Positions 1 to 20,768 of a DNA stretch of 62,960 nt are shown piece after piece. Under the pieces are notes generated by a model, which was given only the letters and a program-made list of their open reading frames with translations, was not told the DNA's origin and ran no database searches. The position numbers and the translations under genes were made by a program. The stretch covers positions 1-62,960 of the forward strand of contig NZ_JAMBOO010000023.1 in NCBI RefSeq assembly GCF_023715895.1, in the 5' to 3' direction. Position 1 is the first letter of the stretch, and each line of letters starts with the position of its first letter. This stretch comes from Domibacillus indicus. Lineage in GTDB: Bacteria; Bacillota; Bacilli; Bacillales; Domibacillaceae.

Positions 1-109
1 CGAATTTAGTGACTATGTCAACTGGTTTAACAAGCTACGAATTCACGGAACACTAGGCTATGTAAGCCCAATTGAATACAAGCAATCGTCCCTTAAAAAG
101 GCTGTCTGA
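1..109 (+). pseudogene. IS3/IS150-type transposase orfB, C-terminal fragment
   Basis: The window opens inside an open frame encoding the last 35 residues of an IS3-family (IS150-type) integrase-fold transposase. It includes the FNKLRIHGTLGYVSPIEY stretch typical of the orfB C-terminus. The same tail recurs at 9953-10057 with very few differences. The shared sequence runs past the stop into GTGTTGAcAATCCA near 126, so the IS right end lies there. Whether the part left of the window is intact cannot be seen. Confidence 0.85.
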
Positions 110-110
110 T

Positions 111-476
111 TTAGTGTTGACAATCCAAACTTCCTTGGTATGATTCCTGCTCATAAATTCTACTCAACAACATTCCATTCAAAAAGTTACGAACCACCTC
201 AATATTACGCTGCTCTTTTGGGAAAACGTCCATACGAGTCTTCAGCAGCCTGCCGATCTCGTCTAAAACAGAAAGGTATCCTTTTAGGATGGCTTCTGGA
301 TCATCATTGTATTCAGCTTCGAAATCTAGGTTCCCCAGTAACATCTTGATCGCACTAATTTGAGCGTCGGTTCCATCAATTACATCCTTATCGCCCGTCA
401 TTGATAAATGAATATCGATGAATGGATCAACAAAAAGGCGTGTGCTTCTGTTTAAGGCTTTGTCTTCTGCTGACAT
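111..476 (-). CDS. Hypothetical protein, 3' end formed by IS terminus
   Basis: A 121-aa soluble acidic protein that I do not recognise. The start is the ATG at 476, preceded by AGGGGAG; an upstream in-frame methionine at 572 has no ribosome site. The last codons (LDCQH and the stop) are read from the IS right end shared with the copy at 10057 onward. The natural C-terminus was therefore probably replaced when the IS inserted. Function is unknown, and the gene may be a truncated allele. Confidence 0.6.
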   Translation of the reverse strand: MSAEDKALNRSTRLFVDPFIDIHLSMTGDKDVIDGTDAQISAIKMLLGNLDFEAEYNDDPEAILKGYLSVLDEIGRLLKTRMDVFPKEQRNIEVVRNFLNGMLLSRIYEQESYQGSLDCQH

Positions 477-572
477 AAATGCTCTCCCCTTTCTTTTATC
501 GGTTTTATTGTAACAAGGAATGAATGTTAAGATTGTAAAAGTTTGGTTAAAAAGTGTTTGAGTCCTTCTCAT

Positions 573-888
573 TGACCTCTAGATTTCATCATGTTCCATA
601 CACTAATGACATGTAGCTGTATGTACTTCATATTTATTCCTAAATCAAAGGATGTTCAACTTCTTAAAACTACCAGGTCTCCATAGACAAGAAGCAGCTG
701 CTATAACCAAACCGTTCCGTATATATATATCATGTATGTATCAACAGAAACCGCCACTTCTTTTCCCAGATAATCTATGGGAAACTAGCAGCAGGTAATT
801 GATCCTCTGTTATTGTTAATTTTCCCTTTAACGGGTTGTTGCATCATAGGAACGAAGCATGCCTCATACTAATTCCAGAACAACAGCA
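573..888. other. Intergenic, no gene seen
   Basis: No open frame with a ribosome site is present on either strand. There is a short AT run (TATATATATA near 720). Otherwise I see nothing that can be supported. Confidence 0.5.
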
Positions 889-961
889 GGATGACTACTA
901 GGTTCGAACCAGCGACTTCTACTCTGTCAAGGAAACGCTCTCCCATTCCGTTATTTCTTCC
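889..961 (-). pseudogene. Degenerate tRNA-Val(GAC)-like relic
   Basis: Read on the minus strand, this segment contains GGGAGAGCG (D-arm), CCTTGACAG (anticodon loop GAC) and GTCGCTGGTTCGAACC (variable and T arm) in correct order and spacing for a tRNA-Val. The D stem, anticodon stem and acceptor no longer pair. It could be a tRNA relic left by a mobile element. A coincidental match inside decayed phage coding sequence cannot be excluded. Confidence 0.35.
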
Positions 962-1040
962 ATTTCCCCCAGCGTCAAGTCACCGGTATGTCAGACGTTA
1001 AGTCAATCGGTTTGTCGCACGTTTTCTTCCATTTTCGCAA

Positions 1041-1071
1041 TAAAAAAAGAGCCACCCGCGTGGGGTCGCTC
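1041..1071 (-). terminator. Rho-independent terminator after holin
   Basis: The minus strand carries GAGCGACCCC-acgc-GGGTGGCTC followed by seven T, directly after the holin stop. Confidence 0.75.
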
Positions 1072-1072
1072 A

Positions 1073-1270
1073 TTATTTTTCTTCATCTTTGTAACCGCTT
1101 CCATTTGACGGATTATTGATAATGCCAGCCGCAATCAGTATCGTCAGTCCTATGTTTACGTAGGCATCATACTTTTCCGGCGCAGTCACAATTCCAGCGT
1201 CCTGTAGCACCATACCTCCAAGCGCCGCCACTGCGACCCACAATCCGTAGTTTTTAAATCGGTTTGTCAT
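1073..1270 (-). CDS. Phage holin, phi-LC3 type
   Basis: A 65-aa protein matching the phi-LC3-type holin family: basic N-terminus (MTNRFKNYGLW), one hydrophobic segment, a PEKYDAYV turn and a second hydrophobic segment ending in GIINNPS. Holins form membrane lesions that release endolysin. The start has AGAAGGAG at good spacing. A second copy, about 65% identical by eye, lies at 5493-5681. No endolysin follows, so this is an isolated prophage remnant. Confidence 0.85.
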   Translation of the reverse strand: MTNRFKNYGLWVAVAALGGMVLQDAGIVTAPEKYDAYVNIGLTILIAAGIINNPSNGSGYKDEEK

Positions 1271-1442
1271 GTGTTAGCACTCCTTCTGTACTTCGACTCC
1301 AGTCAAACTTTTTACCGATAGCCACCGTTGCGCCTAAACCGAGCGTACCGTTCATTACATGATATTCGCCCAGCGTTGAGGCTGCGACTGTTTTCTTTTT
1401 TCTTAGCCCTTCAAACGTGCTCTTTATTCGTTTTGAACACAA
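1254..1442 (-). pseudogene. Phage gene fragment upstream of holin
   Basis: The open frame encodes KTVAASTLGEYHVMNGTLGL and runs a few codons into the holin start. It begins at a TTG without a ribosome site, right after a GC-rich inverted repeat. Similar sequence (TVLASAPGEYLVVD) precedes the second holin near 5770-5810. Both appear to be 3' ends of the same unidentified phage gene. Confidence 0.4.
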
Positions 1443-1549
1443 AAACGAGCCGCCCCCGTGGGACCGCCCGTAGAGTTACGTTATTTAGTTTTCGCTAGTC
1501 AACAAATTGTTCAACTGAATTTGCTTCGGCATAACTTCTATATAAACAC

Positions 1550-1586
1550 AAAAAGACGCCCCTCGAGGAGCAGGCGTTTTTATTTT
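1550..1586. terminator. Bidirectional terminator-like hairpin
   Basis: ACGCCcCTCgaGGAGcaGGCGT is flanked by an A run on the left and a T run on the right. Confidence 0.6.
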
Positions 1587-1649
1587 TGGAATAAAGCTGT
1601 ATAAAAGCGCAAATAATACGGGTTAAACATCCTTTAGGGAGCTGAGATA

Positions 1650-2240
1650 GTGGCAAAAAGGCGCAGCAAAAGACTTAGATATGACAAAATGTCAATTTAC
1701 ATGCTTTACGCCATCATTCTTTTATTCATCCTGCGAAACATTAAAGTATTTATCGGCTATGCCCTGCTCGCCGTTCTTTTAGCGATACCGTATTTTTTAC
1801 TTTGCTGGTATGTAAAGAATGAGGAGAAACGAAAATTACTGCAGGCAGGATTAGATGAAATCGACCGTATGGACGGTATCCATTTCGAGCAATACTTAGG
1901 CGCTTTGTTCACGGTTAATGGTTATACAGTGCAATATACTCCCGCAACCGGCGACTATGGTGCCGATTTGTTGCTGCGCAAGGAAAACCGGACCATCGCA
2001 GTCCAAGCGAAGCGATATAATAGTGCTGTTGGAGTTAAAGCTGTCCAGGAAGTAAGCGGTGCTAAAGGGTATTATCGAACAGACGAGGCATGGGTCATAA
2101 CGAATAATACGTTCACCAAAAACGCCTGCAACTGCGCGGAACGGCTTAACGTGAGATTAATCGACCGCAGCGACTTGATAAAACTAATTGCGGAAAGCAA
2201 GGCGATCACTCAGGCGCATGAAAAGCCCCGTCCGGTTTAG
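1650..2240 (+). CDS. Membrane-anchored Mrr-type restriction endonuclease-like protein
   Basis: A 196-aa protein with two adjacent N-terminal membrane segments (about residues 16-52) and a C-terminal Mrr_cat (restriction endonuclease-like) domain. The catalytic motif is visible as GDYGADLLL followed by IAVQAKRY (D...QxK). The HFEQYLGALF helix before it is also typical. This family cuts DNA, often modified or foreign DNA, but many anchored members are uncharacterised. The start is GTG with AGGGAG upstream. It stands alone among phage remnants and has its own terminator. Confidence 0.8.
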   Translation: MAKRRSKRLRYDKMSIYMLYAIILLFILRNIKVFIGYALLAVLLAIPYFLLCWYVKNEEKRKLLQAGLDEIDRMDGIHFEQYLGALFTVNGYTVQYTPATGDYGADLLLRKENRTIAVQAKRYNSAVGVKAVQEVSGAKGYYRTDEAWVITNNTFTKNACNCAERLNVRLIDRSDLIKLIAESKAITQAHEKPRPV

Positions 2241-2260
2241 TCCGGCGGGGTTATTTTATT
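2225..2260 (+). terminator. Terminator of Mrr-like gene
   Basis: CCCCGtCCGG-tttag-TCCGGcGGGG followed by TTATTTTATTT. The stem overlaps the stop codon at 2238-2240. Confidence 0.75.
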
Positions 2261-2503
2261 TAACACTTTTCTAAAACAGCGTCACACCTCGGCTCATTAA
2301 CGATTGTACAAGGCAATGTTAACCCGGCAACAATCGAGTCAAATGGGGCGGCAGTAAGTACGTTATAAGACCGGAGTAAAAATATTGCGCACAAAAAAGC
2401 CGCCGACAAAAGCGAATCGCTGAATGTATAACCAAGATTTTTACCGTTCACTCCCATAAATACGAATGTTATTCAAGTCGGTAAAAGCATAATATTCCGC
2501 GTA

Positions 2504-2776
2504 TTAGTAATAATGATTGACTACCATCGAGCCAAGTTTATTAACCGCCAATTGGCGCACTGCATCATCGTCTGTTGACACTACAGTCGAGTATATCTTT
2601 GCGACATGCTGGTTCAGCACGATTTCAACCCGGTCAAACAACACAATGCCATCGTTGCTTGCAAAATTTGACCGGAATGTTTGAGTAAATTTCTCCGATA
2701 AAGCTTCGTCTACCGTACTAGGATATTCTTGTGCCGACTCTTTCGCAGATACAAACACGATTAATGCTGTTATCAA
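2504..2776 (-). CDS. Small exported hypothetical protein, start uncertain
   Basis: A 90-aa frame starting at a TTG. Codons upstream of it, back to a stop, spell IIGALTVFSLITALIVFVSA, which looks like a signal peptide or anchor without a standard start codon. The mature part carries no motif I know. Either it starts at a rare ATT/ATA codon or its 5' end has decayed. A weaker 65-aa frame at 2260-2457 on the same strand has no ribosome site and is not called. Confidence 0.3.
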   Translation of the reverse strand: MITALIVFVSAKESAQEYPSTVDEALSEKFTQTFRSNFASNDGIVLFDRVEIVLNQHVAKIYSTVVSTDDDAVRQLAVNKLGSMVVNHYY

Positions 2777-2969
2777 ACTAAATACAGTAAGCGCACCAAT
2801 TATTTAATTGAGCTCACAAGGGTTTGGCTGTATTCATACTAAGGTAGTTGTCGGCCCATAGGTCTTTTCCCTTATTTCGAAGTCGGTTGGCGCAATTTAC
2901 GAAAAACTTTAATTTACTTAACAAATCATCGTTACCATAAGAGAGAAACTAGCGAATAGGAGTGATGTT

Positions 2970-11213: not shown

Positions 11214-11225
11214 GAGGGTTTGGCC

Positions 11226-12584
11226 ATGAAAGTTGCGAAGTCGCTGCTGCACAAAATTACAAACCAGACGGAAATCTTCCATGCTACGCTGGATATTTAC
11301 AATGACGCCCTGTCCTTCATCATTAGGGTTATCGACAAAGAGTTTGATAATACAGACGACCTGACAACAAAGTCGATTGTGCCGGCAGTAGAAAAACTGA
11401 TTCACGCAACTAAATCAAACCCTCAACCTAAATACAAAGAGTTTAACGAACGTTTTTATAAGTTTCCGTCTTACTTCCGCAGAAGTGCCATTGCTTCTGC
11501 TTTTGGCAAAGTAAAGAGCTTCCGCTCTAACTATCAAAACTGGGAAAAAGAGCAGAAGTATGCTCTTTCCGAAGGGAAGAAATTTAAGAAACAGCCTCCG
11601 CGTCTGCAGTTGGAACATAAAGAATTCCCCGTTTTTTATCGCGGAAACATGTTCAATAGAACATCTAATACGACCGCGCAAATAAAGGTATTCCATCAGA
11701 ATGACTGGGTATGGATGGATATCGAATTTAAAGAGCAGGATCATTATAAGCGTGGTGTCTGGGAGTGGAAAGAGAACAACCCTAAGCTAATTAAGCGGGG
11801 AAAGAAATTCTTTCTTTCCATCAGCTATGAAAATAAAGTCACTTTAACGAAAACACCTATTCAAAAACAAAAAGTTTGTGCAGTAGACCTCGGACTGACG
11901 AACTCTGCGGTTTGTTCGGTTATCGATGCAACAGGCACTGTCTTAGGCCGGACATTTATTAACCAGCCTAAAGAAAAAGACCGTCTGCAGACGTTAACGA
12001 ACAAACTGCGGAAAGCCCAGCGGGCAAGCGGCCGTATTCAGGCGCCGAATTTTTGGCGGCAGATCAATGGGTACCAGCAGCATATTGTCCGTCACACAAG
12101 CCATGAAATTGTAAAGTTCGCGGCAAAACATGGCTGTGACGTTATCGTATTCGAGTACTTGGGCAGAATGAAAATCCCAAAGGGGTTTTATGGAGCCAGG
12201 AAACTTCGTTTCAAGCTTCACGGGTGGCGAAAAATAGGCATCCAGAACAAAGTGGAGGAAATGGTGCACTACCTTGGCATGCGCATTTCCCGGATCAATC
12301 CGCGGAACACCAGCGCCCTGGCGTTCGATGGCTCTGGAAAGGTGGAACGGAACCCCAAAAAAGACCTTGTCGTGTTTTCAACGGGCAAAGTCTATCACGC
12401 GGATTTATCTGCTTCGTATAATATCGGCGCCCGCTACTTCATTCGGGCTTTTCAAAAATTCACTTCGGAAACGAAATGGTTGTCTCTTCAGGCAAAAGTT
12501 CCTGATCTGGCAATAAGGACATCCCAGACCTTGTCTTCGTTCATTAGTCTCCATCATGCACTCGGGCTTCCGCAGGAAGCTTAA
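11226..12584 (+). CDS. tnpB: TnpB-family RNA-guided nuclease without zinc ribbon
   Basis: A 452-aa IS605/IS1341 OrfB. The RuvC residues are in place: AVDLGLTNS (Asp), VIVFEYLGR (Glu) and YHADLSASYNIG (Asp). The DPRNTS-like INPRNTSALAF is present, but the four zinc-ribbon cysteines normally between it and RuvC-III are all missing (FDGSGKVERN, VVFSTGKVY). ATG 11226 follows AAAGGAGGG. No tnpA is in the window, so it is moved in trans if at all. TnpB enzymes cut DNA guided by RNA from the element's right end. Confidence 0.85.
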   Translation: MKVAKSLLHKITNQTEIFHATLDIYNDALSFIIRVIDKEFDNTDDLTTKSIVPAVEKLIHATKSNPQPKYKEFNERFYKFPSYFRRSAIASAFGKVKSFRSNYQNWEKEQKYALSEGKKFKKQPPRLQLEHKEFPVFYRGNMFNRTSNTTAQIKVFHQNDWVWMDIEFKEQDHYKRGVWEWKENNPKLIKRGKKFFLSISYENKVTLTKTPIQKQKVCAVDLGLTNSAVCSVIDATGTVLGRTFINQPKEKDRLQTLTNKLRKAQRASGRIQAPNFWRQINGYQQHIVRHTSHEIVKFAAKHGCDVIVFEYLGRMKIPKGFYGARKLRFKLHGWRKIGIQNKVEEMVHYLGMRISRINPRNTSALAFDGSGKVERNPKKDLVVFSTGKVYHADLSASYNIGARYFIRAFQKFTSETKWLSLQAKVPDLAIRTSQTLSSFISLHHALGLPQEA

Positions 12585-13058: not shown

Positions 13059-14210
13059 TTATATTGCCGGAATAAGTCCGATCTGAACCAGCCCGGCTTT
13101 TTCAATGTTTAAGGCAGCATTGTGGTCACGGTCCAGCACAAGACCGCAATCCGGACAGGCATGTGTTCGGATGGAAAGGGATTTTTTCACCCTTTTTCCG
13201 CAGCCTGAACAGTCCTGGGTGGTAAAATGCGGCTTCACTTTGACCAGCTGGCCGCCATTGCGCTCGCATTTGTACGCAAGGAACTGGCGGAACATTCCCC
13301 ATCCTGCATCATGAATCGATTTGGACACTTTCCGGTTTTTCACCAGATTGCGGATGTTCAAATCTTCTACACAAACGACACTGTAGGTGTTTGCCAGGCG
13401 GAACGATGCTTTATGCAGGAAATCCTTCCGCTGGTTCGCTACCCTGGCATGAAGCTTCTGCAGCCTGGCCACTTGTTTTTGCCAGTTTGAGGAGCCTTTT
13501 TTCTTTCTTGAAAGTTTCTTCTGAGCACGCTTGAGCTTTTTCTCCTCCTTACGGAGAAAGCCCGGGTTTAGAATCTCTTCGCCGTTCGACAGGACGGCAA
13601 ATTTCTTGATGCCGACATCAATACCGGCTGTTTTAGAGGCTTTATGGACAGCCTGCGGCGGCTCTGCCTGTCTTTCGACACAGAAAATAGCAAACCAGCG
13701 CCCATTCTGGCGCTTAATGATCACCTGCTTTACTTTGCCATCTAGTTTCCGGTGGAGGCGGATATCTATTAAGCCTAGCTTAGAAATGAGGAGCTTTCCC
13801 CCTTTTCCGAAGGAAACGGCCCGACGGACAGTATGAACCTTTCCTTTTTTATCTTTTTGTTTACTCATGCCAAACTGTGTAAATGTAATGGAATGGTAGT
13901 CTTTATGTGTTTTCACCTTTGGGTAGCGTGCTTCTTTTTTGAAAAATTGATCAAACGCTTTTCCCAGCCTGTCCAGTGTTTCCTGAAGAGGCTGAGAAGG
14001 CACTTTTTTAAGGTATGGATGATGCTTCTTGGATAGTGTTAACAGGGTACTGAGATCAGATTTAGCCAGGTTTTTCTTATTCTTTTGGTAGGCTCTTTGT
14101 TTATCGAGAAGAGCGGAATTATACTGCTGGCGGCAGAGGTTGACCCATGAGTGAAGCGTGCTTTTTTGTTCTTCAGTCGGAAAAATTTCGAACCGGTAAT
14201 TCAACATCAT
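13059..14210 (-). CDS. tnpB: TnpB-family RNA-guided nuclease (IS1341 type)
   Basis: A 383-aa canonical TnpB. It has an N-terminal helix-turn-helix (FEIFPTEEQKSTLHSWVNLC), RuvC-I GIDVGIKKFAVLS, RuvC-II VCVEDLNIRNL, zinc ribbon CSGCGKR...CPDCG and RuvC-III DRDHNAALNI. ATG 14210 follows TGGAGGTG. It is intact, unlike the fragment at 4995. It is convergent with tnpB 1, and their proteins are only distantly alike although the element ends match. Confidence 0.9.
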   Translation of the reverse strand: MMLNYRFEIFPTEEQKSTLHSWVNLCRQQYNSALLDKQRAYQKNKKNLAKSDLSTLLTLSKKHHPYLKKVPSQPLQETLDRLGKAFDQFFKKEARYPKVKTHKDYHSITFTQFGMSKQKDKKGKVHTVRRAVSFGKGGKLLISKLGLIDIRLHRKLDGKVKQVIIKRQNGRWFAIFCVERQAEPPQAVHKASKTAGIDVGIKKFAVLSNGEEILNPGFLRKEEKKLKRAQKKLSRKKKGSSNWQKQVARLQKLHARVANQRKDFLHKASFRLANTYSVVCVEDLNIRNLVKNRKVSKSIHDAGWGMFRQFLAYKCERNGGQLVKVKPHFTTQDCSGCGKRVKKSLSIRTHACPDCGLVLDRDHNAALNIEKAGLVQIGLIPAI

Positions 14211-14592: not shown

Positions 14593-14984
14593 CTACCCTG
14601 TTAAAGATTCGGTTTCCAGCTTTTTCTCCTGTTCAATAGAAAACGACTGTTCCAGCGGGTTTCTCTTTAGGTGTTGGTAATTCTGCTCCAAAGGTCTATG
14701 CCTTTTCGCCATTCGTCGGAACGGATCCGAATAAGTGGAAAGTTTAAATGTTCCCCGGTGAATGGTGAGTGCCGAACGTACTGAAATATCCCCCATTTTG
14801 GGCATTTTCTGTTCAGCCCGCTCTTCATATCGGGCATACAGCTCCTTATCAGGGAACATTTCACTCTCAAACTCGCTGCCATCGTCTCACTGAGTTCCAG
14901 GAGCGATTTCAAACGGCTCCATGTCTTCTTCCACGTCCACCGTGGTCACGTTGAAAGCGAGAGAATTCAGCCTTCTGCTAAGTC
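14593..14984 (-). pseudogene. PhyH-type dioxygenase C-terminal relic with nonsense codon
   Basis: The frame reads FNVTTVDVEEDMEPFEIAPG, TQ, then TGA at 14887-14889, then DDGSEFESEMFP and MGDISVRSALTIHRGT. The PG-T/SH-like and HRGT motifs are those of phytanoyl-CoA dioxygenase-type Fe(II)/2-oxoglutarate enzymes. The TGA is probably a mutated TGG. The 5' half is missing. The break at about 14985 is the edge of the repeat copied from upstream of the integrase. Confidence 0.6.
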
Positions 14985-15174
14985 CACGCAAAAAAACCAC
15001 CTTTCCAAGTTAATCAATTAACAAGTAAAGATGGTTATCGTTATTTACATAAGAAATTAACCGAAATATGACTGAATTTGTGGTGAAGGATTAACCTTTT
15101 CCACGATTCAAACAAATGAACAATGGATCAATACTGACTTATATACAGTTTGAACCATTGATACAAGTGGATTC
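14985..15174 (-). repeat. Duplicate of integrase-yneF spacer, copy 1
   Basis: Resembles 20360-20552 over its whole length. It includes the AACCACCTT...AAGATGGTT hairpin (14995-15036), GAAATTAACCGAAATA and GGATTAACCTTTTCC. The recurring GATTAACC/AATTAACC boxes could be arm-type recombinase sites. The integrase that should follow on the left has been replaced by the PhyH relic. Confidence 0.7.
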
Positions 15175-15266
15175 TTACTTCTTCTCCATCTTGTTCATTT
15201 GTGCCATCATTTGGTTGATTTTCTTTTGTGATGGTTTCATACCCATTTGCATCATCATCATACGCA
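15175..15266 (-). pseudogene. Duplicate 3' end of yneF (att-like), copy 1
   Basis: These 92 bp are identical by eye to the last 92 bp of yneF (20553-20644), including its stop. Beyond 15266 the sequence changes to AAACGTTGATACAACGGGCTT, which also follows the middle copy at 17959. This is what integration of an element into the yneF 3' end leaves behind. Confidence 0.8.
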
Positions 15267-15740
15267 AACGTTGATACAACGGGCTTTATCCAGACAAGAA
15301 AATGCTTAATCTATTATTCGAAAATATACCACGATAAATGATAATTGTCTATGTAAAAACCAGAAAAGAAGTTTAAAATGATGAAACTTTCTATTTAAAA
15401 GGGCTTTAATTACAAAACAAAAAACACGCCCCTAGAGGCGTGTCAGAATTATCTCTCTTTAATAACAATCCTAGATAAAAACAAAAACTGCTACCTACAG
15501 GTTTGGAAGCTGTTGACAATACTCATACGGCAAGGCAGGCTTTACAGAAATGATTTTCAAGCATTGTTTGATGGAACGCTGTGTCAAATACCGCTGCAGC
15601 CGGCACTTTTTGGCAGTACTCGCTGAAACCAATATAGCAATTTCATTTGAGGCGAGCGGAGCAAGGAGTTTACTTTAAAAAAGACCGAATCAGTATAGAA
15701 GCTGATCTGGCCTTTTGTAATAAAGAAAGCTGCACTGCTG
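15267..15740. other. Island end, no gene seen
   Basis: Contains the element end AAACGTTGATACAACGGG, a terminator-like ACACGCCcctaGAGGCGTGT at 15428-15449, and short frames without ribosome sites. Nothing larger can be supported. Confidence 0.45.
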
Positions 15741-17306
15741 TTACGTATTTTGCACTTGTTTTGTTGTCCAGGATTCCACATTCCAAATGTCTGTAGCGAT
15801 GTCCTGATAAAACTCAGGCTCATGGGAAATCAAGAGGATGCTTCCTTTATACTCTTTAAGCGACCGTTTTAATTCATTTTTTGCATCAACATCCAAATGG
15901 TTGGTCGGTTCGTCAAAAACGAGAACATTGCTTTCCCGGTTCATCAGTTTACAAAGCCGTACTTTTGCTTTTTCGCCGCCGCTCAGTACGGATATTTTAC
16001 TTTCAATGTGTTTTCTTGTTAATCCGCATCTTGCTAATGCCGCCCGGACTTCGCCTTGCGTTAAACTCGGAAATTCATTCAGCACTTCTTCAATGCATGT
16101 GTTATTGTTTTCTTTTTTTACTTCTTGCTCAAAATAACCGATATACTGATAGTCTCCCCGCTCTACGCTTCCGGAAAGAGGGTTGATTTCACCGAGTATG
16201 CTTTTTAACAAAGTAGTTTTTCCAATTCCGTTTGCCCCGACCAAAGCAATTTTTTGGCCACGGTCCATCGAAAGGTCAAGCGGCTTGGAAAGTGGGTTAT
16301 CGTAGCCGATCACTAACTTTTCCGTTTGGAAAATTAGCTTCCCAGATGTTCTTGCTTCTTTAAAACGGAAATCAGGCTTTGGCCGGTCTCCTGCCACTTC
16401 AATAATATCCATTTTATCCAGCTTTTTTTGCCGGGACATCGCCAGGCTGCTTGTTGAAGCACGTGCTTTGTTTCTCGCTACAAAATCTTTTAAGTTGGCG
16501 ATTTCCTGTTGCTGCTTTTTAGCGGCTGCCTCTACTTGAAGTTTTTTTGCCTCATAAACTTTTAAAAAGTTATGGTAATCTCCGACATAGCGGGTTAATT
16601 CTTTGTTTTCCAAATGATAAATAATATTCACAACGCTGTTTAAAAAAGGGATATCATGGGAGATTAGAAGGAACGCATTTTCATAGTCCAGCAAATAGCG
16701 TTTTAACCATTCAATATGCACTTCATCCAAATAGTTGGTTGGCTCATCGAGGAGTAAAATATCAGGTTTTTCAAGAAGAAGCTTAGCCAGAAGAACTTTT
16801 GTCCGCTGCCCTCCGCTTAAATCATACACATCTTTTTCAAGCCCTATCCCATCTAAGCCGAGTCCTCTCGCGACTTCTTCCACTTTTGCATCAATGGTGT
16901 AAAAATCATTGGTTGTCAGTATATCTTGAAGGGTTCCAACTTCATCGAGCATTTTTTCCATTTCTTCTGGACTTACATCGGCCATTTGGCCGTAAATATG
17001 ATTAATAGTTGCTTCCATGTCAAATAAATATTGAAAAGCTGTTTTCAGGACATTACGAATCGTTTTTCCTTTTTCTAAAACGGCATGCTGGTCAAGATAA
17101 CCGACCCGCTGATTTTTGGACCATTCAATTTTTCCATCATCCGCCTGAATTTGTCCGGTAATAATATTCATAAACGTCGATTTGCCTTCGCCATTAGCGC
17201 CAACTAATCCAATATGTTCCCCTTTTAACAAACGAAAAGATACGTTTTGAAAAATAACGCGATCGCCAAAATCATGACTTAAATCTGTTACGGTTAGGAT
17301 GCTCAA
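15741..17306 (-). CDS. ykpA: ABC-F family ATPase, YkpA-like
   Basis: A 521-aa protein with two ABC ATPase domains and no membrane segment. Walker A motifs are GANGEGKST and GANGIGKTT. Signatures are LSGGQRTKV and LSGGEKAKV. Walker B/EPT motifs are LLLDEPTNYLD and LVFDEPTNHLD. The linker is KDFVARNKARASTSSLAMSR. It agrees closely with B. subtilis YkpA along its length. ABC-F proteins act on the ribosome, and some protect against antibiotics; this branch is usually housekeeping. Here it lies between two yneF-end repeats. Confidence 0.85.
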   Translation of the reverse strand: MSILTVTDLSHDFGDRVIFQNVSFRLLKGEHIGLVGANGEGKSTFMNIITGQIQADDGKIEWSKNQRVGYLDQHAVLEKGKTIRNVLKTAFQYLFDMEATINHIYGQMADVSPEEMEKMLDEVGTLQDILTTNDFYTIDAKVEEVARGLGLDGIGLEKDVYDLSGGQRTKVLLAKLLLEKPDILLLDEPTNYLDEVHIEWLKRYLLDYENAFLLISHDIPFLNSVVNIIYHLENKELTRYVGDYHNFLKVYEAKKLQVEAAAKKQQQEIANLKDFVARNKARASTSSLAMSRQKKLDKMDIIEVAGDRPKPDFRFKEARTSGKLIFQTEKLVIGYDNPLSKPLDLSMDRGQKIALVGANGIGKTTLLKSILGEINPLSGSVERGDYQYIGYFEQEVKKENNNTCIEEVLNEFPSLTQGEVRAALARCGLTRKHIESKISVLSGGEKAKVRLCKLMNRESNVLVFDEPTNHLDVDAKNELKRSLKEYKGSILLISHEPEFYQDIATDIWNVESWTTKQVQNT

Positions 17307-17464
17307 TTATCGTTTCCTCATTTCGCTTCAAAATTTCTATTAAACTTTAATAGTACCATATCATCTTACATTTAAACAAGGGAGTGTTCTGATCTCCATT
17401 GTCCTAAGCCAGCATAGCATAAAAGTTTTATTTCTCGCCTTTTGTTTTGGTAAAAAAAGTAATC

Positions 17465-17820
17465 AAACGCCTAAATCATACCGAAAACTTCATCAGCGCT
17501 GAACTCTTCCATTATTTTCTTCGTTACTTTTGGCAGCTCCATTTTCCGCATTGATTTTCATTTTAATACCCTTATTAATGTACCAATTAAAAAAAGCCGC
17601 AATCATCTTAGCCATTGATTCCACACTTTGCGGTTGTAAGCCTCCCTGCTACTTAAAACGAATGTATGCCCTCAAATCGTCTGTGTGGATGCTATTTATT
17701 GAGTTGTTGTATCCCACGCCTTTTCTCGAGAAATCCCTTTAGCTGCTTTTATTCCTGGCGTTTGTTTATCATCTTTTTTTCGTATAGCCTTTAAGGACAC
17801 AGTGAAAGTCACACTCTCCC
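17465..17820 (-). pseudogene. Decayed tyrosine recombinase
   Basis: The minus strand encodes DDLRAYIRFK-stop-QGGLQPQSV and AFFNWYINK. This matches residues 49-92 of the intact integrase (DDLRAYIRFKYQSGLQPQSV). The Tyr codon has become TAG, and catalytic C-terminal parts are missing. It is the integrase of the older, inner island. Confidence 0.75.
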
Positions 17821-17843
17821 ATAGTATTTCTAACAACACAAAA

Positions 17844-17885
17844 AACCGCCTCTTATGGTGTATCTTTCACCAGAAAAAGGCGGTT
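17844..17885 (-). promoter_or_regulatory. Hairpin before decayed recombinase, copy 2
   Basis: AACCGCCT...AAGGCGGTT. The stem pairs CCGCC with GGCGG, where the other copies pair CCACC with GGTGG, a compensating change. Confidence 0.6.
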
Positions 17886-17923
17886 ATCTTAGTTTTTATG
17901 AAAAATTAATCAAATTTCGCTCA

Positions 17924-17959
17924 TTGTGATGGTTTCATACCCATTTGCATCATCATACG
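17924..17959 (-). repeat. Duplicate 3' end of yneF (att-like), copy 2
   Basis: TTGTGATGGTTTCATACCC...CATCATACG matches yneF 20604-20642 with one ATC triplet fewer. It is then followed by AAACGTTGATgtAgCGGGCTT, as after copy 1. It marks the junction between two tandem islands. Confidence 0.75.
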
Positions 17960-18081
17960 TAAACGTTGATGTAGCGGGCTTCACCAGCTAACGATAACTC
18001 CTTAAGTTGTGTACGAAAAATATACCTTAAATTGACTTCTTTGTCTACGATTAAGCAGGATTTCCAATGGAAAGTGGTTAA

Positions 18082-19074
18082 TCACTCATCTGAATTCATT
18101 GGTTGTTCTGTCTCTTCCACATCTGTTATATGGCTCTCTCGGACAAGAGCTTGATTCGCTTCAAATATGTTCTTCTTATGCCATTTAAAAAACACCTTAT
18201 TTTCAGAGTGAATCCGTATCTTAGTTAATGGTATCAAGCCATACAGTGGATAGTCTTCCTCACAGATCACTGAGGAAATGTGCAAACGTCCTTGACCATC
18301 AAAAGCAATTAAGCCTCTATCATAAAGAGCATCATGATTACAACAAAGTAGAACGCCGTTATACGGGTTTACACGTTCTGCATTTGTACTGTCTTTCCAA
18401 GGTTTTGAATGGCTGGCTCTTAGTAATTCTGATAAGTTTATACCGCATAGGGCACACTTACTTTCCCATAACGGCATTAAGTCCTTTCTGAACTTTTGCT
18501 GACCCAATCGAATTTTCGTTTTCACTTCAGATTCAGTCTCAGCAATCACTGGAATTAATGTATTGTGTTCTGTTCTTCTTACATCATCAATGGACAATTC
18601 CAATTGTTCTTTATCTACTTGATAAATATTCAACTCGCTAATTAGCTCAAGTAATTTGATGGCTAATTCCTCATTACATGGATATAAGTAGCCTTGATTG
18701 CCATTTGCATCATCCTGGAATGGTGAGTATTTGACAGGCAGCAACGGTAGGATTTCCTCAAACTTGTCACGCACATTAACCGCTCTATCTAATTCATGAT
18801 ATTCTAAATTCACTAAATACCCATCATTTTCCCATTCACTATGACCTTGCAAAGTATCTGGTTTACTGGCTGCCTTACAGTCTTCTTTGGCAATACTCAC
18901 AGCCACAATGTTTCCTTTTACATAATGAAATACTTGATCTCCCTTTTTTACTTCTTTCATTCGCAGCCATGAATGTGGTACAGTGTTTCCCTTACCTTGC
19001 TGTGGTGACCAAATGATTCCTAAATCTTTTTCTTCTTGGTAAGTACGACCTTGCATAACGATAAAACTGTTCAA
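18082..19074 (-). CDS. EVE-HNH modification-dependent endonuclease-like protein
   Basis: A 330-aa protein. The N-terminus (FIVMQGRTYQEEKDLGIIWS ... GDQVFHYVKGNIVAVSIA) is an EVE/PUA-like domain, which reads modified bases. The C-terminal half is an HNH nuclease: CALCG, LLRASHSKPW, NPYNGVLLCCNHDALYDRG. EVE-HNH fusions include enzymes cutting 5-methyl- or hydroxymethylcytosine DNA, so an anti-phage role is likely. The start is ATG or a nearby codon with TAAGGAGGAAG upstream. It is cargo of the outer yneF island. Confidence 0.8.
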   Translation of the reverse strand: MNSFIVMQGRTYQEEKDLGIIWSPQQGKGNTVPHSWLRMKEVKKGDQVFHYVKGNIVAVSIAKEDCKAASKPDTLQGHSEWENDGYLVNLEYHELDRAVNVRDKFEEILPLLPVKYSPFQDDANGNQGYLYPCNEELAIKLLELISELNIYQVDKEQLELSIDDVRRTEHNTLIPVIAETESEVKTKIRLGQQKFRKDLMPLWESKCALCGINLSELLRASHSKPWKDSTNAERVNPYNGVLLCCNHDALYDRGLIAFDGQGRLHISSVICEEDYPLYGLIPLTKIRIHSENKVFFKWHKKNIFEANQALVRESHITDVEETEQPMNSDE

Positions 19075-19176
19075 CTTACTTCCTCCTAAACCACGTACAT
19101 GTATTGATGTTTTTCATTTTATATTAAATATTCTATTGAATTAACATGGTCTGACGCTCACTCTAAAAACACAAAA

Positions 19177-19250
19177 AAAGGTTAATATATGCGGATGATC
19201 TCAAATTATCATTAATCTGAGATCATCGATATATCACCTTTTTTCCAAAA
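19177..19250. terminator. Long palindromic terminator after tRNA-Arg
   Basis: AAAAAAGGT...GATGATCTCA-aattatcattaaTC-TGAGATCATC...ACCTTTTTT forms a nested hairpin with T runs on both strands. Confidence 0.6.
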
Positions 19251-19251
19251 A

Positions 19252-19325
19252 CGTCCCAGATAGGAATCGAACCTACGACCTACAGCTTAGGAGGCTGTTG
19301 CTCTATCCTGCTGAGCTACTGGGAC
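19252..19325 (-). tRNA. tRNA-Arg (anticodon CCU)
   Basis: The minus strand folds as a full cloverleaf: acceptor GTCCCAG/CTGGGAC, D-arm GCTC..GAGC, anticodon arm ACAGC-CTCCTAA-GCTGT and T-arm GTAGG-TTCGATT-CCTAT. The 3' CCA is not encoded. It lies between the nuclease and the integrase inside the island. Either it is island cargo or it is a host gene trapped by the second insertion. Confidence 0.93.
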
Positions 19326-19483
19326 AAAAATTCAGTTGATATATATAGGTTTGTTGGATTTGCTCTGTCTTGTTTTTGTTCTTTTGTCTCGCAGCTATCC
19401 TTTAGCAGTGCCCTACTTTTCCCCCTTATTTTATCATATAGCAAGCCAAAGTAAAAAGGCAGCTGTTTAAATTTAGCTGTCTT

Positions 19484-20359
19484 TTAACATATAAAACTAC
19501 AAGTTTCATCTGTCAATGATTCTAGATACCTCTGAGTAGTTAAAATGCTCGTATGTCCTAGCAGGCGTGACAGGGAATAAATATCAATTCCATTCATTAA
19601 TAACGTTAAGGCAAAGTAATGACGGAACGTATGAGGCGAAATTCGTTTCCCTTTGACTCCTGCCCGTCCCCCTGCTTCCTTTATCACTTTATCTAAAGAC
19701 ACATGAGAAAGTCCTCGTCCTTGATAAGATAAAAAGTACGTATCCTCCTTAAGTATCTTATCCTTTACATACTCTCTACGGATTCTCTCATACTTCACTA
19801 ACACTTTCTTCAAAGCAGGACTAATATAGGCAGTACGCTCCTTATTCCCTTTCCCATATACAAGAATCGACGTTTCTCCTACATTCTCATAAGGCAATGT
19901 CCTTATTTCCATCGCCCTAAGCCCACAGTCCGCCAGCATGGCGATGATTGCCTTGTTCCTGGCTTCTTGATAGGACTTATAGCTAAATGCCTCTATCATG
20001 CTGTATATGTCGTCTACGTTAAAGCCCTTCAAGACTTTCTTCGGTACTTTGGATGTCTCAACCTTCTTCATTAAATTTTCTTCCGAATATCCTTCACGGA
20101 CACACCAATTAAAAAACGCTGAAACCATCTTATACATAGAGACAACACTTTGCGGCTGTAGCCCCGACTGATACTTGAAGCGGATATAGGCTCTCAAATC
20201 ATCTAAGTGAATATTTTGAAGCTGTGAAATTCCCCGCTTCTCTTTCAGGTATAGTTTAAGGTTCTTGAGTTCCTGTTTCTTATTAATCAAAGTCTTTTTC
20301 GTAAAGCCTTTTGCTAAACAGTAATAGATGTATTCCTCAATTACATCTTCTAACTCCAT
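19484..20359 (-). CDS. Tyrosine recombinase / integrase
   Basis: A 291-aa XerC/D-like recombinase. It has an N-terminal SAM-like core-binding domain (EEYIYYCLAKGFTKKTL), then the catalytic domain with Arg in DCGLRAMEIRTL, HTFRHYFALTLL (HxxR), LLGHTSILTT (His) and TQRYLESL (Tyr). ATG 20359 has its GGAAGGTGG ribosome site inside the 3' arm of a hairpin (20365-20405). It lies 190 bp from the yneF stop, as expected for an integrase acting at that site. Confidence 0.9.
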   Translation of the reverse strand: MELEDVIEEYIYYCLAKGFTKKTLINKKQELKNLKLYLKEKRGISQLQNIHLDDLRAYIRFKYQSGLQPQSVVSMYKMVSAFFNWCVREGYSEENLMKKVETSKVPKKVLKGFNVDDIYSMIEAFSYKSYQEARNKAIIAMLADCGLRAMEIRTLPYENVGETSILVYGKGNKERTAYISPALKKVLVKYERIRREYVKDKILKEDTYFLSYQGRGLSHVSLDKVIKEAGGRAGVKGKRISPHTFRHYFALTLLMNGIDIYSLSRLLGHTSILTTQRYLESLTDETCSFIC

Positions 20360-20364
20360 AAAAA

Positions 20365-20405
20365 AACCACCTTCCTTGGTTAATCTTTCACAAGAAAAGG
20401 TGGTT
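20365..20405 (-). promoter_or_regulatory. Hairpin covering the integrase ribosome site
   Basis: Minus strand AACCACCTT-ttcttgtgaaagattaaccaagg-AAGGTGGTT followed by TTTTT and the ATG. It can act as an intrinsic terminator or hide the ribosome site. Copies at 14995-15036 and 17844-17885 keep the fold. Confidence 0.6.
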
Positions 20406-20552
20406 ATCGTTATCTAAAAGAGAAATTAACCGAAATACGGCTGAATTTGTGGAGAAGGATTAACCTTTTCAACAAAAACATCCAAATGAACAATGGCTTA
20501 AAAAAGTTCGAAAATAGCCCAAATCCTTGATGTATCAAGGTTTAAAGGCAAA

Positions 20553-20768
20553 TTACTTCTTCTCCATCTTGTTCATTTGTGCCATCATTTGGTTGATTTT
20601 CTTTTGTGATGGTTTCATACCCATTTGCATCATCATCATACGCAGCATTTGTTCGTTAATCGGTGGATTTTTCTTTAAGTAATCCATCATGTAACGGCGT
20701 GCGATGAAAAATCCGAGGGCTACACCAGCAGCAAGCGCCAGGACAGCCGTAAGCACATACCCAAACAT
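20553..20768 (-). CDS. yneF: YneF family membrane protein
   Basis: A 71-aa protein with one N-terminal membrane helix ([20 protein letters not shown]), a conserved [20 protein letters not shown] core and a Met/Lys-rich tail. It is a full-length match to YneF, whose function is unknown. Its 3' 92 bp are duplicated at 15175-15266. The coding end therefore serves as an integration site and is regenerated by the incoming element. Confidence 0.92.

What the first reader, a model, noticed from the sequence alone, without database searches (positions are those of the whole stretch)
14985..20768. Tandem islands integrated into the 3' end of yneF
The last 92 bp of yneF (20553-20644) recur exactly at 15175-15266 and in part at 17924-17959. 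Both extra copies continue into the same foreign sequence (AAACGTTGAT..A.CGGGCTT), unlike yneF itself. An intact tyrosine recombinase sits beside yneF, and a decayed one lies beside the middle copy. The sequence between recombinase and yneF is also duplicated at 14985-15174. The simplest reading is at least two, probably three, successive insertions that rebuild the yneF 3' end each time. A protein-coding gene end as integration site next to tkt is, to my knowledge, not a described hotspot.
Basis: partly seen in the sequence, partly recalled or inferred. Interest (0 to 1): 0.78.

Follow-up and report, generated by a model that had tools for sequence, protein, structure and literature searches.

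The report
Gene-end integration hotspot at yneF
Mobile DNA elements in Domibacillus and related bacteria repeatedly insert into the last codons of the same small host gene, rebuilding its end each time, and here three such insertions lie stacked in various states of decay.

Summary
The window is a Domibacillus contig. Its tyrosine recombinase belongs to a clade tied to the 3' end of yneF: in an order-wide sample all 13 at 53% identity or more (own included) lie directly behind yneF. A second yneF 3' copy marking the far att site was found in 12 of 24 loci examined. Crossover is bounded to yneF nt 163-189, which holds the gene's most conserved 24 nt. A conspecific genome, G764, shares the ABC-F island but has a different recombinase and different last YneF codons at the yneF-proximal slot. 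The clade also serves 35-37-kb phage-like elements and 16.6-16.8-kb capsid-encoding, apparently tailless ones. Sister clades sit behind yebC, eno and guaA. Nearly all int genes examined follow a hairpin that could cover their ribosome-binding site. The kind (3'-end-targeting, gene-rebuilding, stacking islands) is known. yneF as a site was not found in my searches. Activity is untested.

The parts
20553..20768 (-). yneF (UPF0154, 71 aa), the target gene
   Evidence: Pfam PF03672 E 4.2e-30; ORF
20553..20644 (-). attL of island 1: 92-bp yneF 3' end
   Evidence: exact repeat; crossover within yneF nt 163-189, i.e. window 20580-20606 (bounds from other genomes)
20365..20405 (-). terminator-like hairpin, 3' arm holds the apparent Shine-Dalgarno of int
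   Evidence: SD placement read by eye
19484..20359 (-). int of island 1, yneF-specific tyrosine recombinase, 291 aa, open
   Evidence: R148 K173 H243 R246 H269 Y278 invariant in the 15-17 of 18 rows that cover them; clade 99/97
19251..19326 (-). tRNA-Arg(CCT), cargo of island 1
   Evidence: ARAGORN, Rfam RF00005
18082..19074 (-). HNH endonuclease gene, cargo of island 1
   Evidence: Pfam HNH_2 E 1.2e-10; PADLOC HNH E 3.3e-25
17961..17981 (.). island 1 end motif (AAACGTTGAT...CGGGCTT)
17924..17956 (-). truncated yneF core: attR of island 1 / attL of island 2, with an internal deletion of about 145 bp compared with G008
17844..17885 (-). leader hairpin of the island 2 int remnant
17361..17834 (-). 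decayed yneF-type int of island 2
   Evidence: tblastn residues 3-160, 8 in-frame stops; leader plus int start 80.9% nt identical to G010
15741..17306 (-). ABC-F ATPase gene, cargo of island 2
   Evidence: NCBIfam NF000355 395 bits, cut-off 380; region 97.7% identical in G008 and 98.2% in G764
15267..15287 (.). island 2 end motif
15175..15266 (-). attR of island 2 / attL of island 3: exact 92-bp copy
14985..15174 (-). spacer of island 3, including its leader hairpin (14995-15036); its int is gone

Best explanation
The yneF 3' end is the chromosomal attB of a dedicated clade of tyrosine recombinases. An element circle carries attP: an end motif, a copy of the yneF 3' end with its own last codons, a spacer, and int. 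Recombination inside yneF nt 163-189 joins the host's first ~55-63 codons to the element-borne tail (attL) and moves the host's own tail to the far end (attR). YneF stays in frame with an element-supplied C-terminus and attB is rebuilt, so further elements can insert and stack. In the window, island 1 (int, tRNA-Arg, HNH) lies in front of island 2 (dead int, ABC-F) and a remnant of island 3 (core and leader only). Shown: repeats, clade-specific placement, crossover bounds, different tails in conspecific genomes with different ints, close yneF-ccdA spacing in family members. Inferred: the int protein catalyses this; the leader hairpin keeps int off; loss of int froze islands 2 and 3.
For: Repeats and anatomy. 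13 of 13 ints at 53% identity or more (own included) lie behind yneF, and 0 of 5 weaker hits (34-42%) do. 5 of 5 above 50% in the named-genome scan do; two of these have the contig lengths of G008 and G210 and so repeat them. 18 yneF-adjacent ints form one group, 99/97. Far att copies in 12 of 24 loci examined. Crossover bounds: G006 mismatch at nt 162, G330 divergence from nt 190. G000 and G764 (same species): yneF identical over nt 1-201, all 6 differences in 202-216, while the island 2 region is shared at 98.2% over 1995 bp. Sister species G008 (96.9% on the tkt side) shares the island 2 region at 97.7% over 2284 bp but has a different proximal element. yneF-ccdA gap 504-905 bp in 10 of 11 family genomes and 2442 bp in the other, against 2.0-28.5 kb in the 9 Domibacillus genomes with both genes in the stretch read. 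All 12 informative Domibacillus genomes keep an int, an int remnant or at least the int leader behind yneF.
Against: No excision or circle was observed. Island 3 is absent at that place in G008 and G764, so its age relative to island 2 is open; insertion into an inner core copy is possible. G764 has no clean second yneF copy, only a 23-bp weak match, so its proximal element has a deletion-type far boundary. No far copy was found in G274, G213, G048, G010, G009, G004 (about 4 kb read), G764, or within 9 kb in REN3 and P. frigoritolerans, nor in G001, G002, G005. One int fragment of the clade (L178, G008) lies behind the ABC-F gene with no yneF copy in its 1.5-kb flanks. No element-free site was found in the species or the genus.
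Confidence: 0.93

Rival explanations
1. The copies arose by ordinary segmental duplication or homologous recombination between repeats; the recombinase is a bystander.
For: The G008 distal copy is long (185 bp identical in yneF; 213-bp match including spacer), as a duplication could give; islands 2 and 3 carry no working int.
Against: The int clade is tied to yneF in 8 genera. Copy boundaries in most elements fall at element ends, several with a shared motif. Far copies 16.6-36.7 kb away bound phage-like elements in other species and genera.
Confidence: 0.03
2. One composite island entered once and later decayed, rather than several successive insertions.
For: All three islands share leader, core and orientation.
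Against: Conspecific G764 and sister G008 share island 2 but carry different ints (70% and 78% identical to the window's) and different DNA next to yneF. The three spacers in the window differ clearly from one another (66.7% and 79.9% where aligned).
Confidence: 0.05
3. The int genes are now largely inactive and the hotspot is maintained by general recombination between flanking core genes.
For: Of 12 informative Domibacillus genomes only 6 have an open full-length int; 3 have remnants and 3 only a leader relic. G002 has about 14 kb of extra genes and no int.
Against: The window int is open with all catalytic residues; complete att pairs exist in several species.
Confidence: 0.15

Closest known systems
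Genomic islands and prophages that use a protein-coding gene 3' end as attB and restore it (SaPI and icd-type cases recalled; general statement in PMC12884075, passages seen)
   Same: Tyrosine recombinase beside the target, direct repeat equal to the gene 3' end, gene rebuilt
   Different: Target is yneF, not found in the searches made; the element-borne tail changes the last codons of YneF
guaA 3'-end islands (recalled as a known site)
   Same: Five ints in this tree (33-35% identical to the window's) sit behind guaA and have the leader hairpin
   Different: Separate clade and separate target
Tandem accretion of ICEs/IMEs and composite islands (e.g. PMC8978831, PMC7168690; search listing only)
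   Same: Successive insertion at a regenerated site
   Different: Here the inner recombinases are decayed; no conjugation gene was found among the few window ORFs scanned
Capsid-forming PICIs (recalled; on PICIs in general one passage of PMC10111431 was seen)
   Same: 16.6-16.8 kb elements with TerL, portal and major capsid but no tape-measure-sized ORF
   Different: SU10-type capsid, gene order unlike the recalled one, helper unknown; the window islands carry none of these genes

Membership tests
Site-specific, gene-restoring tyrosine-recombinase islands | Tyrosine recombinase with complete catalytic set next to the target | tested here: met
   Island 1 int; islands 2 and 3 have a dead or lost int
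Site-specific, gene-restoring tyrosine-recombinase islands | Direct repeats of the target end flank the element | tested here: met
Site-specific, gene-restoring tyrosine-recombinase islands | Empty site in relatives | tested here: met
   10 of 11 family genomes of other genera have yneF and ccdA 504-905 bp apart. No empty site within the species or genus: all 12 informative genomes keep an int, remnant or leader
Site-specific, gene-restoring tyrosine-recombinase islands | Element supplies the missing 3' end | tested here: met
   G011 attL/attR tails differ after nt 200, G330 after nt 189; G000/G764 tails differ
Site-specific, gene-restoring tyrosine-recombinase islands | Excision and integration activity | not testable with these tools
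   needs PCR or a recombination assay
Tandem accretion array | Two or more att copies in the same orientation with element DNA between | tested here: met
   three cores, three leaders
Capsid-forming PICI (elements of G210, G011, G006, not the window) | Own capsid and packaging genes, no tail genes | tested here: inconclusive
   TerL, portal and major capsid found in G210 and G011 (SU10_MCP in G210); no tape-measure-sized ORF; many small ORFs unassigned. G006 judged by DNA similarity to G011
Capsid-forming PICI (elements of G210, G011, G006, not the window) | Mobilised by a helper phage | not testable with these tools
   -
Prophage / ICE (the window islands themselves) | Structural or conjugation genes | tested here: not met
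   ORFs scanned in the islands: int, HNH, ABC-F, plus a tRNA; an 88-aa ORF at 14593-14859 had no hit; other small ORFs were not scanned

The most novel reading that the evidence does not exclude
One recombinase lineage has split into clades, each bound to the 3' end of a different housekeeping protein gene (yneF, yebC, eno, guaA). It keeps int under a shared hairpin that covers its own ribosome-binding site, and it serves full prophages, a new family of tailless capsid-encoding satellites, and small cargo islands that compete for and stack at the same site, each writing its own C-terminus onto the host protein.
Probability: 0.4. Interest if true: 0.68.

Novelty: new member of a known kind. Interest (0 to 1): 0.52.

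Why it matters
It gives an addressable integration site and recombinase family for Bacillales, seen in 8 genera of one sample. It shows in natural genomes how a gene-rebuilding insertion edits the end of a host protein. The match of recombinase clade and target gene makes target switching testable. Prophages and likely satellites sharing one site is a clean setting for studying competition.

Tried and rejected
A hairpin test by folding energy alone was rejected as evidence. z < -2 in 17 of 17 yneF-class ints (of 18 held) and 10 of 10 sister ints (of 11), but also in 13 of 17 distant control ints (of 19), whose hairpins are ordinary upstream terminators by inspection. The distinctive point is the SD inside the 3' arm, read by eye. 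G107 is an exception: its hairpin ends about 75 nt before the int start, and the stem that one search folded there is another one. The covariation controls are moderate: of 500 shuffles, 2 reach the observed cells paired, 6 the pairs changed on both sides, 0 the cells changed on both sides, 56 the further pair types, 5 the covariation score. The rows are related, so these are not probabilities.

Conservation of nt 163-186 (0.938) is the top window, but others come close (0.925 at 164, 0.924 at 132). The 30 sequences are the best-matching of 60 and include the window's own.

The 12-bp repeats GGTTAATCTTTC in the spacer as int arm sites: present in most but not all spacers, fewer on the other arm; left open. 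tRNA-Arg as a shared part of the islands: rejected; only the window has it among 26 loci.

Phages, plasmids and viral contigs searched for close int relatives: none above about 35%. Literature: no paper on yneF as attB (open-licence PMC texts, listings read); related searches. Supplementary tables and the TIGER/Islander database were not searched, so these elements may be catalogued there without comment.

In one search the G387 att search used a mis-framed query; one search repeated it correctly and found a decayed second copy. One search also showed that G001 and G002, which I had taken for int-free, keep the int leader hairpin.
Full report
OBSERVATION. The window is contig C97 of a 5.08-Mb assembly. 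Its genus is Domibacillus by a named relative, PGB-M46, whose contig has the length of G008's and the same int. The 92-bp repeat, the 33-bp middle copy, the shared end motif, the duplicated spacer and the decayed recombinase are all present as described. The middle copy is short because the window lacks about 145 bp that sister species G008 still has between core and leader.

TARGET SPECIFICITY. In 397 genomes sampled from the order, 18 have an int at E <= 1e-40 (at most six candidates per genome were scored). The 13 at 53% identity or more, own included, from 8 genera in 8 families, all have yneF directly upstream; the 5 at 34-42% do not. In the named-genome scan 55 relatives were found. The 5 above 50% all sit behind yneF; no yneF was found in the held loci of the other 50. 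A class-wide sample of 398 genomes gave no int above 37% besides the window's own. The weaker hits are not random: L121, L122, L150 and L164 sit behind a TACO1/YebC-family gene, L123 and L125 behind enolase, and L126 and L151-L154 behind guaA (Pfam confirmed for 8 of these 11). In a tree of 29 ints and 4 outgroup rows each target is one group (yneF 99/97, guaA 100/100, eno 100/98, yebC 92/95), and the target changes 3 times among the 29, the least possible. Remnants and two duplicate records were not in the tree.

CROSSOVER AND TAIL REPLACEMENT. attL and attR were compared in 11 loci (12 pairs, two from the window). G006 differs at nt 162 to the left and G330 diverges from nt 190 to the right, which bounds the crossover to nt 163-189 (codons QKKINQMMA). 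Over 30 yneF sequences the most conserved 24-nt window begins at nt 163 (mean 0.938; gene mean 0.842; the next best is 0.925). What follows is a variable tail. In G011 the far copy ends in QQDK while the gene now ends in MEKK. In G000 and G764, the same species, yneF is identical over nt 1-201 and all six differences lie in nt 202-216.

STACKING. G764 and G000 share the island 2 region (98.2% over 1995 bp) and deeper DNA (96.0% over 5677 bp), but the DNA next to yneF differs (int 70% identical). G008, a sister species (96.9% on the tkt side), shares the island 2 region at 97.7% over 2284 bp and again has another proximal element, 10.8 kb core to core. So the proximal slot has most simply been refilled since these lineages split. 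Against a simple order, the junction of island 3 is missing from both relatives, so island 3 could be an older relic lost twice or an insertion into an inner core; and G764 lacks a clean att between its proximal element and island 2. Of 13 Domibacillus genomes, 6 have an open full-length int at yneF (G000, G006, G008, G010, G011, G764), 3 have remnants (G003, G004, G009), and 3 have no int by tblastn but keep the leader hairpin behind yneF (G001, G002, G005). Fragmentary G007 shows no yneF.

WHAT USES THE SITE. G107 (36.7 kb) encodes a large terminase, SPP1-type portal, tape measure, tail endopeptidase and amidase. G257 (35.9 kb) has terminase, portal, minor and major head proteins, tape measure, an FtsK-like protein and a replication-relaxation protein. 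G335 (35.4 kb) has a minor-tail-type tape-measure protein, the only one of its proteins scanned. G330 (36.3 kb) was not scanned. G210 (16.8 kb) and G011 (16.6 kb) have terminase, portal and a major capsid protein (SU10 type in G210), with no ORF long enough for a tape measure. G006 (16.7 kb) matches G011 across much of its length at DNA level, terminase and portal included. These look like capsid-encoding satellites, an inference only. The window's own islands are small: int, tRNA-Arg(CCT) and HNH; and dead int plus ABC-F.

LEADER HAIRPIN. Directly before int lies a hairpin, then a T-run, then the start codon; the Shine-Dalgarno-like stretch lies in the 3' arm (by eye). G107 is an exception, its hairpin lying about 75 nt upstream. 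On 23 leaders, 9 pairs hold in 93.6% of cells, against 57-72% when slid, and 6 pairs show changes on both sides. A hairpin in this position also occurs before the 10 yebC-, eno- and guaA-type ints examined. Likely role, not tested: read-through from yneF is stopped and int translation is hindered in the integrated state.

COMPARISON. Gene-restoring insertion into protein-gene 3' ends and tandem accretion are known kinds (PMC12884075, passages; PMC8978831 and PMC7168690, listings only; SaPI, icd and guaA cases recalled). yneF as a site was not found, which cover open-licence PMC full text only. I therefore rate it a new member of a known kind, with a within-species demonstration of tail exchange and a broader clade-target pattern that deserves follow-up.

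Noticed in passing
window 18082-19326; L184 / L215 (G003:C1): The tRNA-Arg(CCT)+HNH block (88.9% over 1339 bp) also sits in G003 beside what looks like a different, longer integrase (read by eye, not scanned). Closest matches in G764 and G008 are TCT-type only, so in G000 this tRNA may be an acquired one.
   Followed up: partly
L121, L122, L150, L164; L123, L125; L126, L151-L154: Sister recombinase clades sit behind yebC, eno and guaA. The yebC element in G004 (L183) has a 188-bp second copy of the yebC end (98.9% identical) about 5.7 kb beyond the int start.
   Followed up: partly
L036, L038, L127: 16.6-16.8 kb elements with terminase, portal and capsid genes but no recognisable tail: possible satellite family.
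   Followed up: partly
window 1-2808; L149: The window left end is a transposase-like fragment (read by eye), and contig C169, which carries ccdA, ends in what reads as 23S rRNA sequence. G008 gene order suggests they are neighbours, so yneF-ccdA is broken in the assembly.
   Followed up: partly
window 11220-12584 and 13059-14210: Two ORFs that look like TnpB-type proteins (by eye, not scanned) lie in the same interval.
   Followed up: no
window 15741-17306: The ABC-F gene has a 76-78% identical paralogue in all 13 genus genomes searched and 96% identical copies at other places in G002, G003 and G005.
   Followed up: partly
L035, G008 13441-13769 past yneF (L178): In G008 a second int remnant (C-terminal part) lies on the other side of the ABC-F gene, overlapping in residues with the first remnant, so two dead ints flank the gene.
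   Followed up: partly
L055: The record titled Chryseobacterium sp. ISL-80 has the contig length of G210, which is placed in the window's own order; the title looks wrong.
   Followed up: no
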